Shown here: positions 28,656-34,207 of the stretch, piece by piece
Numbering within the stretch: position 1 is the first letter of the stretch
Layout of the letters: every line of letters begins with the position of its first letter
Assembly (NCBI GenBank): GCA_025054955.1
Contig: JANWZE010000030.1
Coordinates: forward strand, 1-64,000
DNA length: 64,000 nucleotides
Source of the DNA: Blastocatellia bacterium
GTDB lineage: Bacteria > Acidobacteriota > Blastocatellia > HR10 > J050
Reading direction: 5' to 3'
Translations under genes and position numbers: made by a program
Notes under the pieces: generated by a model
Databases searched by the model: none
Told to the model about the DNA's origin: nothing
What the model saw: the letters and a program-made list of their open reading frames with translations, nothing else

Positions 28656-31301
28656 CTAACTACTAACGGCTGCCGTCTTCGCCTCAGGCTTGAAGACGAG
28701 TTTTCCGTCCTCAGCATCTACCACGACTGTCGAATGGTCCTGAATCTGACCTTGCAAAATCAACCGAGCAAGCGGCGTCTCGATTTCTCGTTGGATCGCT
28801 CGCTTGAGCGGCCGGGCGCCGTAAACCGGGTCATAGCCAACCCGCGCGACATGCGCTTTGGCCGCATCCGTCAAGACTAACTCAATGTGTCGTTCATTCA
28901 GTCGCAACTGCAACCGCTGTAGTTGAATCTCGACAATCTGCTTCAAATGCACTTCGCTCAGCGCATGAAACACAACGATCTCGTCAACACGATTGAGGAA
29001 CTCCGGTCGAAAATAATGACGCAATTCACCGAGCACGGTTTCCTTCATCCGCTGATAACTGGCTTCATCAACGCCGCCACGATACTCCAAAATCAGGTGG
29101 CTACCGATGTTGGACGTCATGATAATGATCGTGTTCTTGAAATCAACTGTCCGACCGTGACTGTCAGTGAGCCGACCGTCGTCTAAAATCTGCAACAGGA
29201 TATTGAACACGTCCGCATGAGCCTTTTCGATTTCGTCAAACAAAATGACCGAATATGGCTTTCGCCGTACAGCTTCCGTCAACTGCCCGCCCTCCTCGTA
29301 ACCGACATAACCGGGCGGCGCGCCGATGAGCCGAGCGACCGTGTGCTTCTCCATATACTCAGACATGTCAAGCCGAACCATCGCCCGCTCGTCGTCAAAC
29401 AGCGCCTCGGCCAGGGCGCGGCCTAACTCGGTTTTGCCAACGCCGGTCGGCCCAAGAAATATGAAACTGCCAATCGGACGATTCGGGTCTTTCAATCCAG
29501 ACCGTGCACGCAAGACGGCCTCCGCTACCGCCTGAACGGCTTCGTCCTGCCCGACGACCCGCCGGTGTAATTGCTCATCCAAGTGCAACAGCTTTTGTAA
29601 TTCACCTTCCAGTAATTTACTGACCGGCACGCCCGTCCACCGACTGACCACCTGCGCAATGTCTTCCTCGTCCACTTCCTCTTTAATCAATCGCGCGCGG
29701 CCACGCTGACGAGCCAGTTCATCCAGTTGCTGCTGAACACGCTTCATTTGATTTGTCAACTCAACCAGCTTGCCATACTTCAACTCAGCCGCTCGACTCA
29801 AATCATACTCTCGCTCTGCCTGCTCAATTAAAATCTTTGTCTCTTCAATCTGCTGCTGGGTCTCCCGCAGTTGCGCGATGATCTTTTTCTCCTCTTCCCA
29901 TTGGGCCTTGATGTCGTCGGCTTGCAGGCGAAGCTCGGCCAGTTCCTCTTCCAACTTGCGCAGCCGCTCACGCGACACCTCGTCAGTTTCCTTCCGCAAT
30001 CCCTGACGCTCGATTTCCAATTGCATGATGCGCCGCGTCGCTTCATCCAGTTCAAGCGGCATTGAATCAATCTCGGTGCGCAACCGCGCCGCCGCCTCAT
30101 CAACTAAATCAATGGCCTTGTCCGGCAAGAAACGGTCGGTGATGTACCGATGACTTAACACCGCTGCCGCCACCAACGCGGCATCTTTGATGCGAACGCC
30201 ATGATGCACTTCGTACCGTTCGCGCAAGCCGCGCAGAATCGAAATCGTGTCCTCGACCGAAGGCTCATCAACCAAGATCGGTTGGAACCGGCGCTCCAAC
30301 GCTTTGTCTTTTTCGATATACTTCCGGTACTCATCCAACGTGGTCGCGCCGATGCAATGCAATTCGCCCCGCGCCAGCATCGGCTTGAGCAGATTACTGG
30401 CGTCGGTGTTAGAACCCTCGGCGCGGCCTGCCCCGACCACTGTGTGTAGCTCGTCAATGAACAGGATAATGTCGCCTTGCGACTCTTGAATCTCTTTGAG
30501 CACGGCTTTCAACCGCTCTTCAAACTCGCCTCGATATTTGGCGCCGGCAATGAGCGCCCCCATATCAAGGGCTACCACGCGCCGATTCTTCAAGCCTTCA
30601 GGCACATCACCGCGAATGATGCGCTGCGCCAGCCCTTCAACAATCGCCGTTTTCCCGACACCCGGATCGCCAATCAAGACCGGGTTGTTCTTAGTTCGCC
30701 GAGACAGAACCTGAATGACCCGACGAATTTCCTCATCACGACCGATCACCGGATCAACTTTGCCCTGCGCAGCTAACCTAGTCAGGTCGCGTCCATAACG
30801 CTCAAGGGCTTGATACGTGGCTTCCGGCGTGGGACTGGTCACACGCTGGGAACCGCGAACCTCGCGCAACACATTCATCAGCTTGTCCCGCGTCAATCCC
30901 AATTCCAGCAAAATCCTTCCAGCCGTCCCTTTCCGCCCCTCTTCAAGAATCCTCAACAGCACATGCTCAATGCTGACGTACTCATCATTGAGCCGCTTGG
31001 CTTCATCCTCAGCCTCGGCCATCATGCGATTTAGCCGCGATGTGATATAAATTTGCTCCGGTCCAGCAGCAGGCCCGCTGACCTTAGGTAACCGAGCTAA
31101 TGCTTGCTCCAACGCCTGGCTCACAACCGCCGGCCTGATGCCTGTCCTCTCCAAGAGGATTGAGGCCAGCCCTCCCTCCTGCTGAAGTAAAGCCAGTAAT
31201 AAATGTTCAACGTCAATCTGCTGGTGGCTGTAACGAGCTGCAATGGCTTGCGCCCTGCCAAACGCCTCCTGAAGTTTCTCTGTAAACCGATTGATGTCCA
31301 T
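28656..31301 (-). CDS. clpB: ClpB disaggregase
   Basis: This hexameric AAA+ chaperone rescues aggregated proteins together with DnaK/DnaJ. The 881 residues contain the N-terminal double Clp repeat (about 1-145), the first AAA+ module with Walker A GDPGVGKT at 211-218, and the middle coiled-coil domain (about 400-530, strongly charged). A second AAA+ module has [11 protein letters not shown] near 610 and the C-terminal D2-small domain. The middle domain distinguishes it from ClpA and ClpC. I start at the ATG at 31301 ([14 protein letters not shown]), matching ClpB N-termini, not the TTG at 31322. It is 60 nt after cbpA and under the probable HspR promoter upstream of the rpoZ-like gene. Confidence 0.96.
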
Positions 31302-31361
31302 ACTTGTCTGCTCGTTGGTCAATGAGCCATCGCCGAAGACGAATGGCGCATCGCTAAATGA

Positions 31362-32294
31362 TTATCTTTGTGCCCAACCATTGCGCGGGTTGAAACGCGA
31401 CTCCTTGGCGAGTTGTTCAAACAATTTCTTTTCAGCAGGGCTCACCTGGGTCGGGACGACGATTTTCAGCCGAACGTATTGGTCACCCCGACCACCACCG
31501 CGCCGCATCAAGCCCTGACCACGAAGCCGTAGCTTTTGCCCATTTTGAGAATTCGGGGGAATCTTCACATCGGCAAAGCCGTCCAACGTAGGAACGACAA
31601 CAGTCGCTCCGAGGACGGCTTCCCATGGAGTAATGGGAATCTCCACCGTCACATCATCGCCAGAAACCTGGAACACAGAATGGGGCTGCAACTTCACACG
31701 CAAATAAACGTCTCCAGGCCGCCCACCACCGTGAGCCTGTCCCGCCAACCGGATCAATGAACCCTCTCTCACCCCCGCAGGAATCTTCACATCCAAAGCC
31801 CTGCCATCGGCCAGTACAACACGCCGTGAGCCGCCCCGATGGGCTTCTTCAATGGTCAGCGGTAATTCCATTTCGGTATCGGCTCTGGGCATACCCCACG
31901 AACTAGGTCCCGCCTTCGCCTGCGTCCGTCCACCCCGCCAGGCATCGCCAAACAGCATCTCAAAAAAATCACTGAAACCACTTGGTGACCCACCACCGAA
32001 GCCGAAATCACCAAAATTAATGCGGATATTTTCCCACCCAGGAGGCGGCGTAAAATCAGCGCCTCCCTTCCAGTTGGTGCCGAGGCGGTCGTACATCTGT
32101 CGCTTTTGCGGATCACTCAGGACCTCGTAAGCTTCGTTGATCTCTTTGAACTTCTCTTCTGCCGCCTTGTCTCCCGGATTGACGTCCGGGTGATACTTGC
32201 GAGCCAGTTTACGAAACGCCGCTTTAATCTGATCCTGCGTCGCCGAGCGACTGACTCCCAAAATCTCGTAATAATCTTTGTACTTAACGGCCAT
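31362..32294 (-). CDS. cbpA: DnaJ-family co-chaperone (CbpA type)
   Basis: The 310-residue J-protein has the J domain at 1-70 with HPD at 35-37, a Gly/Phe-rich linker ([10 protein letters not shown]), and two beta-barrel substrate-binding domains ([16 protein letters not shown]..., [13 protein letters not shown]). The zinc-finger CxxCxGxG repeats of DnaJ are absent, so it is CbpA-like. It would present substrates to DnaK, which is not in this window. GAAAGGAAC precedes the ATG. The gene sits between the acidic ORF and clpB in the same operon, as is common in HspR-regulated clusters. Confidence 0.93.
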
Positions 32295-32377: not shown

Positions 32378-32980
32378 TCATCCTCGCCAATTTAATACTT
32401 GCATGAGTTCCGCCCGAGCAAAATTTTCTTCACGACGGGCCCGGCTCAACTCAGCAATAGCTTTTTGGTACGCCTCCTTCAACCTCTCAGGGGGTCGAGG
32501 CCCAGCTTCGCGCAATTGCGTGTTCAGGTCGCGAACCCGCTCTAGCGCGATATGAACTCGCTCGCGATCCGCCAGCAACCGCGACATCAACCGACCGAGC
32601 ATCTCCTGGCGCGTTTCTCGCCGTGGCGGCGCTTCAGGTACTTCAGTGACTTCCTCTTCATCCTCCTCATCCCCGTTTCCATACTCGTCATACGACGAGC
32701 GCATTGGCCGTTGCTCTACCTCTCTTGATGTCTCCACCCGATCTCTGGCAACCGATGCGACTGGTTCTACTTCGACCTGCTCACGAGCAGCAGCCATTTG
32801 ATCTACTTCATGAGCATCAAGATTGGTCAACACTTCTTCTTCCGAAAACTCTTCCTCCAAAGACTCCAGCTCCTCAAGAGCCAGTTCATCTTCAAGCTCA
32901 ACGACACTTTCATCTATGGCATCTTGAGCCATCTCTTTCACTTCGTTATCTCGATCCGCTTTTGTACGCTTCCGTGGCAT
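32378..32980 (-). CDS. Highly acidic protein of unknown function in heat-shock operon
   Basis: The 200-residue protein is strongly acidic in its first 120 residues (LEDELALEELESLEEEFSEEE, then DEEDEEEVTEVPE) and basic and helical in the last 75 (RQEMLGRLMSRLLADRERV..., AIAELSRARREENFARAEL). No signal peptide, cysteine or known motif is visible. The helical C-terminus with an acidic N-terminus recalls GrpE-like architecture superficially, but GrpE signatures are missing. GGGAG precedes the ATG, and the gene lies 30 nt after the rpoZ-like gene. Its position in front of cbpA-clpB suggests a stress or RNA-polymerase related role, which is inference. Confidence 0.65.
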   Translation of the reverse strand: MPRKRTKADRDNEVKEMAQDAIDESVVELEDELALEELESLEEEFSEEEVLTNLDAHEVDQMAAAREQVEVEPVASVARDRVETSREVEQRPMRSSYDEYGNGDEEDEEEVTEVPEAPPRRETRQEMLGRLMSRLLADRERVHIALERVRDLNTQLREAGPRPPERLKEAYQKAIAELSRARREENFARAELMQVLNWRG

Positions 32981-33011: not shown

Positions 33012-33281
33012 TTACTTGGCGCTCCCTTGTGACCTTGCGCCAGTGCGTGTACTACCCCAGGACGAATTCTGCTCTAACCACCGTTGAAGCTCAGGCACCT
33101 CAGGCTGAATTCGTCCATCAACCAATTCTCTGAGAGCCTGGTTCACCGCCCATGCAATGCCCTGACTCTCACTGTGTTTAATGTATTGGTTTGCTCGCTT
33201 GGCTACAAGCGCACAAACCAAGTAACGGCTTCCGACCTTTCCTAATGCTTCCTCAACAAATTTCTTTCTCGACCCGCTCAT
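33012..33281 (-). CDS. rpoZ: Probable RNA polymerase omega subunit
   Basis: The 89-residue protein fits omega in length. The segment SRYLVCALVAKRANQYI, followed by a spacer and AVNQALRELVDGRI, mirrors the conserved omega pattern of a hydrophobic helix ending in AxRAxQ and a second helix EIAxGKI. Omega helps to assemble beta-prime and can mediate ppGpp response. GGGGGA precedes the ATG. It is the first gene behind a strong TTGACA/TATTCT promoter carrying the candidate HspR operator, an unusual setting for rpoZ. The identity rests on pattern and length only. Confidence 0.55.
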   Translation of the reverse strand: MSGSRKKFVEEALGKVGSRYLVCALVAKRANQYIKHSESQGIAWAVNQALRELVDGRIQPEVPELQRWLEQNSSWGSTRTGARSQGSAK

Positions 33282-33321: not shown

Positions 33322-33350
33322 AGAATAAAATATGAGTCAAATTTTGTCAA
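33322..33350 (-). promoter_or_regulatory. Sigma-70 promoter of the rpoZ-like/cbpA/clpB operon
   Basis: On the minus strand, TTGACA (33345-33350) and TATTCT (33322-33327) are separated by exactly 17 nt, about 40 nt before the rpoZ-like ATG at 33281. A candidate HspR operator overlaps the -35 box and spacer. Confidence 0.8.
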
Positions 33351-33351
33351 C
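33331..33351 (-). promoter_or_regulatory. Candidate HspR operator (HAIR-like), operon side
   Basis: Read on the minus strand the site is GTTGACA-N7-ACTCATA. The known HspR element HAIR is CTTGAGT-N7-ACTCAAG; the half-sites TTGA and ACTCA and the 7-nt spacing agree. The same sequence occurs at the divergent hspR promoter (33455-33475). Confidence 0.65.
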
Positions 33352-33454
33352 GTAGTCTTATTTTTCGCCAAAAACCAAACGACAAACTAAAACGATTTCA
33401 AGGGTTAGGAAGGGAGCTAGCTACCTGCTCAAGGCCCCTCAGAAACAGTCAAAA

Positions 33455-33475
33455 CTTGACAAATGCGTACTCATA
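33455..33475 (+). promoter_or_regulatory. Candidate HspR operator (HAIR-like), hspR side
   Basis: CTTGACA-N7-ACTCATA matches the other operator (33331-33351) at 13 of 14 half-site positions. It keeps the HAIR spacing of 7 nt and overlaps the hspR -35 box, so binding would block RNA polymerase. Confidence 0.68.
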
Positions 33476-33484
33476 TATTAGGAT
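33456..33484 (+). promoter_or_regulatory. Promoter of hspR-infA
   Basis: TTGACA (33456-33461), a 17-nt spacer and TAGGAT (33479-33484) form a plausible sigma-70 promoter. A second -10-like TATTAT lies at 33498-33503. No ribosome binding site precedes the hspR ATG at 33516. Confidence 0.6.
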
Positions 33485-33515: not shown

Positions 33516-33962
33516 ATGGTGCTGAAGCAGCGAAGAAAACGAGGCTACACAATCAGCGCTGTCGCTGAAGCCTATGATATCCATCCCCAAACCCTGCGTC
33601 TGTATGAGCGTCAAGGCCTTCTCACTCCATCGCGCTCTCAAGGTAACACGCGCTACTATACGGAAGAAGACCTTGGACGGCTCGAGCTGATTCTTACGCT
33701 GACACGCGATTTAGGTGTGAATTTAGCCGGCGTCGAAGTCATCCTGAACATGCGTGAGAAGATGGATGCGATGCAGCGTGACTTTGAGCGGCTAATAGAA
33801 TCCATCCGTCGCGAAGTGAGCGAGCAGTTTGCCCATCAGGTTGCTGAGCGGTTCCCTATCGTACCCGTTTCTCCGGCGGCAATCGTTCGACTCCAGACTG
33901 ACTCGCCACTGGAGGACGGCGCCCATGCCTCGGACGGCATGACGCGTCGGAAAAAGAAATAA
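33516..33962 (+). CDS. hspR: HspR-type MerR-family heat-shock repressor
   Basis: The 148-residue protein has a MerR winged-helix domain: YTISAVAEAYDIHPQTLRLYERQGLL at about 11-36 and SRSQGNTRYYTEEDLGRLELI at 40-60. The LTRDLGVNLAGVEVILNMREKM segment characteristic of HspR follows. HspR, usually with DnaK as co-repressor, represses chaperone genes at normal temperature. The first 20 residues of the longer frame have no HspR similarity, so the ATG at 33516 is used. It diverges from the rpoZ-like-cbpA-clpB operon, with matching candidate operators at both promoters, and is followed after 20 nt by infA. Confidence 0.93.
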   Translation: MVLKQRRKRGYTISAVAEAYDIHPQTLRLYERQGLLTPSRSQGNTRYYTEEDLGRLELILTLTRDLGVNLAGVEVILNMREKMDAMQRDFERLIESIRREVSEQFAHQVAERFPIVPVSPAAIVRLQTDSPLEDGAHASDGMTRRKKK

Positions 33963-33982: not shown

Positions 33983-34207
33983 ATTCCTAAGGAAGAAACC
34001 ATTCCAGTTGAAGGGACTGTCGTGGAAGCGTTGCCCAACACGACGTTTCGTGTGAAGCTTGACGGAAATGGCCATGAAGTCTTGGCCCACTTGTCCGGCA
34101 AAATGAGAAAGAATTACATCCGCGTCCTGCCAGGGGACCGTGTGCGCGTGGAATTATCCCCCTATGACTTAACCCGGGGACGCGTTACCTATCGCTACAA
34201 CAAGTGA
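33983..34207 (+). CDS. infA: Translation initiation factor IF-1, apparent AUU start
   Basis: IF-1 occupies the 30S A site during initiation. The 74-residue product aligns with IF-1 throughout ([53 protein letters not shown]). The expected N-terminus, Met-x-Lys-Glu-Glu, corresponds to ATT CCT AAG GAA GAA, so the start codon is ATT at 33983. It stands 9 nt after a strong GGAGG (33969-33973). An in-frame TGA at 33974-33976 excludes earlier starts, and the first canonical start codon, GTG at 34022, would remove 13 residues including part of the conserved first strand. A sequencing error for ATG is the main alternative. It is cotranscribed with hspR. Confidence 0.93.

What the first reader, a model, noticed from the sequence alone, without database searches (positions are those of the whole stretch)
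33322..33484. Twin HAIR-like operators on divergent heat-shock promoters
Between hspR and the rpoZ-like-cbpA-clpB operon, both promoters carry [C/G]TTGACA-N7-ACTCATA in the orientation of transcription, with TTGACA serving as the -35 box. The sites are 33455-33475 (plus) and 33331-33351 (minus). Known HspR HAIR is CTTGAGT-N7-ACTCAAG; the half-site cores and the 7-nt spacer agree, but the outer bases differ. This predicts a variant HspR operator that competes directly with sigma binding at both promoters, giving autoregulation and operon repression from paired sites.
Basis: partly seen in the sequence, partly recalled or inferred. Interest (0 to 1): 0.75.

Follow-up and report, generated by a model that had tools for sequence, protein, structure and literature searches.

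The report
HspR operator fused to -35 box
Two back-to-back heat-shock promoters in an Acidobacteriota bacterium carry the same conserved DNA site, in which one half of the likely binding site for the heat-shock repressor HspR doubles as the promoter's -35 box, and this layout is shared by heat-shock genes across much of the phylum.

Summary
It is far beyond chance. All ten genomes examined from the same order keep both divergent sites while the spacers vary; one of the 20 sites has a changed right arm. Genome scans find the motif almost only at heat-shock genes; the host has five such promoters (hspR, rpoZ-clpB operon, hsp20-dnaK, groESL, hsp20-lon). An unbiased dyad search recovers it in 41/41 dnaK promoters of the class. 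Across 297 Acidobacteriota genomes the motif with its -10 occurs in 88 (reversed control: 3 hits), while textbook HAIR is at chance level. dnaK promoters in HspR-bearing genomes have the downstream half-site (59/71); those in HspR-lacking genomes do not (1/29). It is a lineage-wide variant of the known HspR/HAIR system, not a new kind of system.

The parts
33455..33475 (+). HAIR-like operator of hspR, CTTGACA-AATGCGT-ACTCATA (CTTGACA-N7-ACTCATA); left arm contains the -35 box
33331..33351 (-). HAIR-like operator of the rpoZ-orf200-cbpA-clpB operon, GTTGACA-AAATTTG-ACTCATA; left arm contains the -35 box
33456..33484 (+). hspR promoter core TTGACA (33456-33461) -N17- TAGGAT (33479-33484)
   Evidence: -10 conserved as TA(G/C)(G/C)AT in the order genomes
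33322..33350 (-). chaperone-operon promoter core TTGACA (33350-33345) -N17- TATTCT (33327-33322)
   Evidence: -10 conserved as TATT(A/C)T in the order genomes
33516..33962 (+). hspR, MerR-family heat-shock repressor (148 aa)
33012..33281 (-). rpoZ-like gene (RNA polymerase omega, PF01192); the only such hit in the genome
32378..32980 (-). conserved 200-aa ORF of unknown family; in another family of the order it follows dnaK
31362..32294 (-). cbpA/DnaJ-type co-chaperone
28656..31322 (-). clpB

Best explanation
The two sites are operators for the neighbouring repressor HspR, of a form in which the upstream half-site (CTTGA-CA) is merged with the sigma70-type -35 hexamer TTGACA and the downstream half-site (ACTCA-TA) lies in the promoter spacer, 7 bp further on. 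At normal temperature an HspR dimer sits on the site and occupies the -35 region, so RNA polymerase cannot use the promoter. When protein damage draws HspR (and, by analogy with actinobacteria, its co-repressor DnaK) away, a near-consensus promoter is freed. One site controls hspR itself (autoregulation, with a -10 further from consensus) and the divergent one controls rpoZ-orf200-cbpA-clpB. Shown here: the sites, the promoter geometry, conservation, restriction to heat-shock genes, and co-occurrence with hspR. Inferred: HspR binding, exclusion of polymerase, heat release, DnaK as co-repressor.
For: Exact twin sites. Both divergent sites in 10/10 order genomes: arms nearly invariant while the middle of the N7 spacer and most flanking columns vary. 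Genome-wide scan of 10 genomes with <=1 mismatch: 30 hits against 6 for the reversed control; 28 of the 30 lie at hspR, rpoZ, hsp20/dnaK, hsp20, groESL or lon. Host genome: of 26 TTGACA-N17-TATNNT sequences only four have the CTCA/CTAA half-site in register, and all four precede heat-shock genes. Unbiased dyad search: TTGA-N10-CTCA in 41/41 dnaK promoters of the class, shuffles at most 6. Phylum: motif with -10 in 88/297 genomes, reversed control 3 hits; all 30 fetched loci precede dnaK, hsp20(-clpB), cbpA-hspR or hspR/rpoZ. 85 of the 88 encode HspR; the other three are 72-92% complete. dnaK promoters: 59/71 with the half-site when HspR is present, 1/29 when absent, Fisher p 2.7e-14. The arginine matching M. 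tuberculosis HspR R29, reported as involved in HAIR binding, is invariant as R28. M. tuberculosis HAIR has the same ACTCAT right arm.
Against: No binding or expression data. Only 10/14 (plus) and 9/14 (minus) bases match textbook HAIR, and exact textbook HAIR is at chance level in the phylum. The HspR here scores 99.6 against NCBIfam's cut-off of 105 for HspR. In 12 of 30 sampled dnaK upstream regions from HspR-bearing families outside the class the degenerate motif was not found. The HspR-presence test is confounded by phylogeny because losses are family-wide, and a few upstream regions belong to DnaK paralogues.
Confidence: 0.9

Rival explanations
1. The conserved block is a promoter for a dedicated heat-shock sigma factor, and ACTCA is part of what that sigma reads rather than a repressor site.
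For: The motif is restricted to heat-shock genes, and CTTGA resembles the E. coli sigma32 -35 (established knowledge).
Against: The core is a near-consensus sigma70 promoter, TTGACA-N17-TATTAT. The sigma32 -10 (CCCCATnT) and its spacing are not present. ACTCA lies at about -23 to -19, where sigma70 is not known to read specific sequence. It is lost in HspR-lacking families while a CTTGAC -35 stays. The site sits on hspR itself.
Confidence: 0.05
2. The operator is bound by a different repressor (HrcA or an unidentified factor) that happens to control the same genes.
For: Binding specificity has not been measured.
Against: The HAIR half-site cores and 7-bp spacing match. No GCACTC-N9-GAGTGC (CIRCE core) was found in the 2.2-kb groESL region. 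The motif co-occurs with HspR.
Confidence: 0.04
3. Chance plus ordinary strong promoters: ACTCA is incidental.
For: TTGACA is a common promoter hexamer.
Against: 0 of 20,000 shuffles; conserved in 10/10 order genomes; 41/41 dnaK promoters in the class; 22 other TTGACA-N17-TATNNT sequences of the host lack it.
Confidence: 0.005

Closest known systems
HspR/HAIR of Streptomyces (CTTGAGT-N7-ACTCAAG; minimal TTGAGY-N7-ACTCAA, MEME TKGARTNNNYNNRAYTCA; PMC2687793)
   Same: MerR-family HspR, 7-bp spacer, TTGA/TCA half-site cores; targets dnaK operon, clpB, lon
   Different: Here the left arm is CTTGACA, fixed as the -35 box; usually one site per promoter (S. coelicolor dnaK has three); the right arm drifts between lineages (ACTCAAG, ACTCATA, ACTAAGG, GCTTAGG)
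M. tuberculosis HAIR (CTTGAGC-N7-ACTCATC oligo; PMC10415612)
   Same: Right arm ACTCAT is the same as here; DNA-binding arginine position conserved
   Different: Left inner bases GC rather than CA
HAIR-like operators of Helicobacter pylori and Campylobacter jejuni (PMC6102357, PMC7464140)
   Same: Degenerate, asymmetric HAIR, in C. jejuni with one arm better conserved; the H. pylori site overlaps HspR's own (cbpA) promoter
   Different: Extended binding (70-80 bp in H. pylori) with flanking low-affinity or non-conserved regions; several sites lie upstream of the core promoter; no fixed fusion to TTGACA reported in the passages read

Membership tests
HspR repressor | MerR-type HTH and best curated match HspR | tested here: met
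   PF13411 9.4e-19; best NCBIfam matches are the two HspR models
HspR repressor | Score above NCBIfam NF047375 cut-off (105 bits) | tested here: not met
   99.6 bits, 5 bits short of the curated cut-off; this is an annotation threshold, not a functional criterion. Orthologues in the class lie downstream of dnaJ and dnaK as classical HspR does
HspR repressor | Genetic linkage to dnaK/dnaJ/clpB | tested here: met
   Divergent to rpoZ-orf200-cbpA-clpB here; downstream of dnaJ outside the order
HspR repressor | DNA-binding arginine (M. tuberculosis R29) | tested here: met
   R28 invariant in 14 orthologues, with E18/H23 at the same spacing as E19/H24/R29
HAIR operator | Two inverted half-sites with TTGA/TCA cores, 7 bp apart | tested here: met
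HAIR operator | Exact CTTGAGT-N7-ACTCAAG | tested here: not met
   10/14 and 9/14 matches; exact form at chance level in the phylum. HAIR is known to be degenerate, so this is filed as a variant, not as a standard member
HAIR operator | Bound by HspR; derepression on heat shock or hspR loss | not testable with these tools
   needs EMSA/footprint and expression data

The most novel reading that the evidence does not exclude
Across Acidobacteriota the HspR operator has been rebuilt so that one half-site and the -35 box are the same fixed sequence. That would make the operator obligatorily asymmetric, force direct competition between HspR and sigma at every heat-shock promoter, and leave only the downstream arm free to evolve. 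In the order studied it would also place the cell's only RNA polymerase omega subunit under heat-shock control.
Probability: 0.6. Interest if true: 0.5.

Novelty: new variant of a known kind. Interest (0 to 1): 0.45.

Why it matters
It gives a concrete heat-shock operator for Acidobacteriota, a large and poorly studied phylum: no paper describing HspR regulation there was found in the held library (coverage is partial). The operator is specific enough to predict the regulon in many genomes of the group. It is also a clean natural case of a repressor site whose one arm is locked by the promoter while the other drifts, and the HspR-lacking families provide a built-in control.

Tried and rejected
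Exact textbook HAIR across 297 genomes: chance level. sigma32-type promoter: no CCCCAT-type -10 or matching spacing. CIRCE/HrcA at groESL: no GCACTC-N9-GAGTGC core in the 2.2-kb stretch. RNA element in the region: no Rfam match. DNA looping between the paired sites: centre distances are 122-124 bp in the host's family but 81-85 and 102 bp elsewhere, so no fixed spacing argues for it. L093 and L086 matched with 1 mismatch but have no -10 in register and no heat-shock gene.

Full report
Observation. The two sites are present at the stated coordinates with no error. Each is part of a promoter-like TTGACA-N17-hexamer: TAGGAT for hspR, TATTCT for the divergent operon. Shuffling the 234-bp intergenic region 20,000 times never gives the full motif and never gives two cores.

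Setting. The window lies on contig 30 of a 4.69-Mb, 99.5% complete genome. The nearest named relatives of its HspR are Acidobacteriota MAGs, one labelled Blastocatellia (77-78% identity), so I place it in that class. hspR (33516-33962, +) is followed by infA. Divergent are rpoZ-like, a 200-aa ORF, cbpA and clpB. In all ten genomes of the order examined, hspR is divergent to rpoZ or to hsp20-rpoZ; in one family rpoZ is followed by dnaK. In other orders of the class hspR instead lies downstream of dnaJ, with dnaK upstream.

Conservation. In the ten order genomes both divergent promoters carry [C/G/A]TTGACA-N7-ACTCATA, with only small departures: one right arm ACTCACA (L014, plus) and one GCTAAGA (L013, minus). 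Over the 20 aligned sites TTGACA and the C, T and A of CTCA are invariant, and the A and second C of ACTCA are 19/20. The middle of the N7 spacer has 0.1-0.35 bits per column, and most of the sequence outside the promoter is similarly variable. The -10 is TA(G/C)(G/C)AT on the hspR side and TATT(A/C)T on the chaperone side in all ten, which suggests a weaker promoter for the repressor gene.

Regulon. Scanning ten order genomes with at most one mismatch gave 30 hits against 6 for the reversed pattern. All but two lie before hspR, the rpoZ or hsp20 side, hsp20-dnaK, hsp20, groESL or lon. In the host, further sites precede groESL (CTTGACA-N7-ACTCAAA, TATAAT), hsp20-dnaK (CTTGACA-N7-GCTCAGA, TATTAT) and hsp20-lon (CTTGACA-N7-ACTAAGA, TATTAT). 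Of the 26 TTGACA-N17-TATNNT sequences in the host genome, only these three and the rpoZ-side promoter have the half-site in register, so ACTCA is not a general feature of its strong promoters.

Beyond the order. An unbiased search for spaced 4-mer pairs in 41 dnaK upstream regions of the class found TTGA-N10-CTCA in all 41; shuffled sets reached at most 6. Several of these have right arm ACTCAAG, the full HAIR half-site, with left arm CTTGACA, which links the window's form to HAIR. hsp20-clpB operons of the class have it too. In 297 phylum genomes the motif with a -10 in register occurs exactly in 88 genomes (roughly 120 sites; control 3), and all 30 fetched loci are heat-shock promoters. Exact CTTGAGT-N7-ACTCAAG is at control level. 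In sampled families outside the class the right arm drifts (ACTAAGG, GCTTAGG) while CTTGACA mostly stays.

Link to HspR. 85 of the 88 motif-bearing genomes encode HspR; the other three are 72-92% complete assemblies from families in which relatives have it. In genomes without a detectable HspR, 1 of 29 dnaK upstream regions has the half-site, against 59 of 71 with HspR (Fisher p 2.7e-14). HspR losses are clustered by family, so the p-value overstates independence. The HspR orthologues share an invariant HPQTLR recognition segment whose arginine corresponds, by spacing to E19 and H24, to M. tuberculosis R29, which is reported as involved in HAIR binding.

Mechanism. The -35 box lies inside the operator, so steric competition with polymerase is the simplest reading. 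Heat release and DnaK as co-repressor are carried over from actinobacteria and are not tested here. Known HAIR variants already include ACTCAT right arms (M. tuberculosis oligo) and degenerate asymmetric sites (H. pylori, C. jejuni). I therefore call this a new lineage-wide variant of HspR/HAIR. Whether databases of inferred regulons already list it could not be checked.

Noticed in passing
33983-34207 (+), and L010-L012, L014-L018: infA (IF-1) has no ATG/GTG/TTG start: an AGGAGG-type ribosome site overlaps an in-frame TGA and the frame then opens at ATT. The ATT is conserved in all nine order genomes where infA follows hspR, suggesting an AUU start codon for IF-1 (AUU is known for infC, which makes IF-3).
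   Followed up: partly
33012-33281 (-): The rpoZ-like gene is the only PF01192 match in the host and in each order genome searched, so the apparent sole omega subunit of RNA polymerase is in the heat-shock operon.
   Followed up: partly
L300-L325 (dnaK upstream regions of HspR-lacking Acidobacteriota families): 20 of 29 carry a different conserved promoter-like pattern, CTTGAC-N15-TCTTA (e.g. L316 CTTGACAGCCCCGATATCGAATCTTA), possibly an alternative sigma factor replacing HspR control.
   Followed up: partly
32378-32980 (-): Conserved 200-aa ORF without Pfam or NCBIfam match between rpoZ and cbpA; in L189 (another family of the order) its relative follows dnaK, the place where grpE often sits.
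   Followed up: no
L013, L014 and L190, L191: In two genera of the order an hsp20 gene lies between the minus operator and rpoZ-dnaK; in the host's own family hsp20-dnaK sits elsewhere in the genome with its own copy of the operator.
   Followed up: partly
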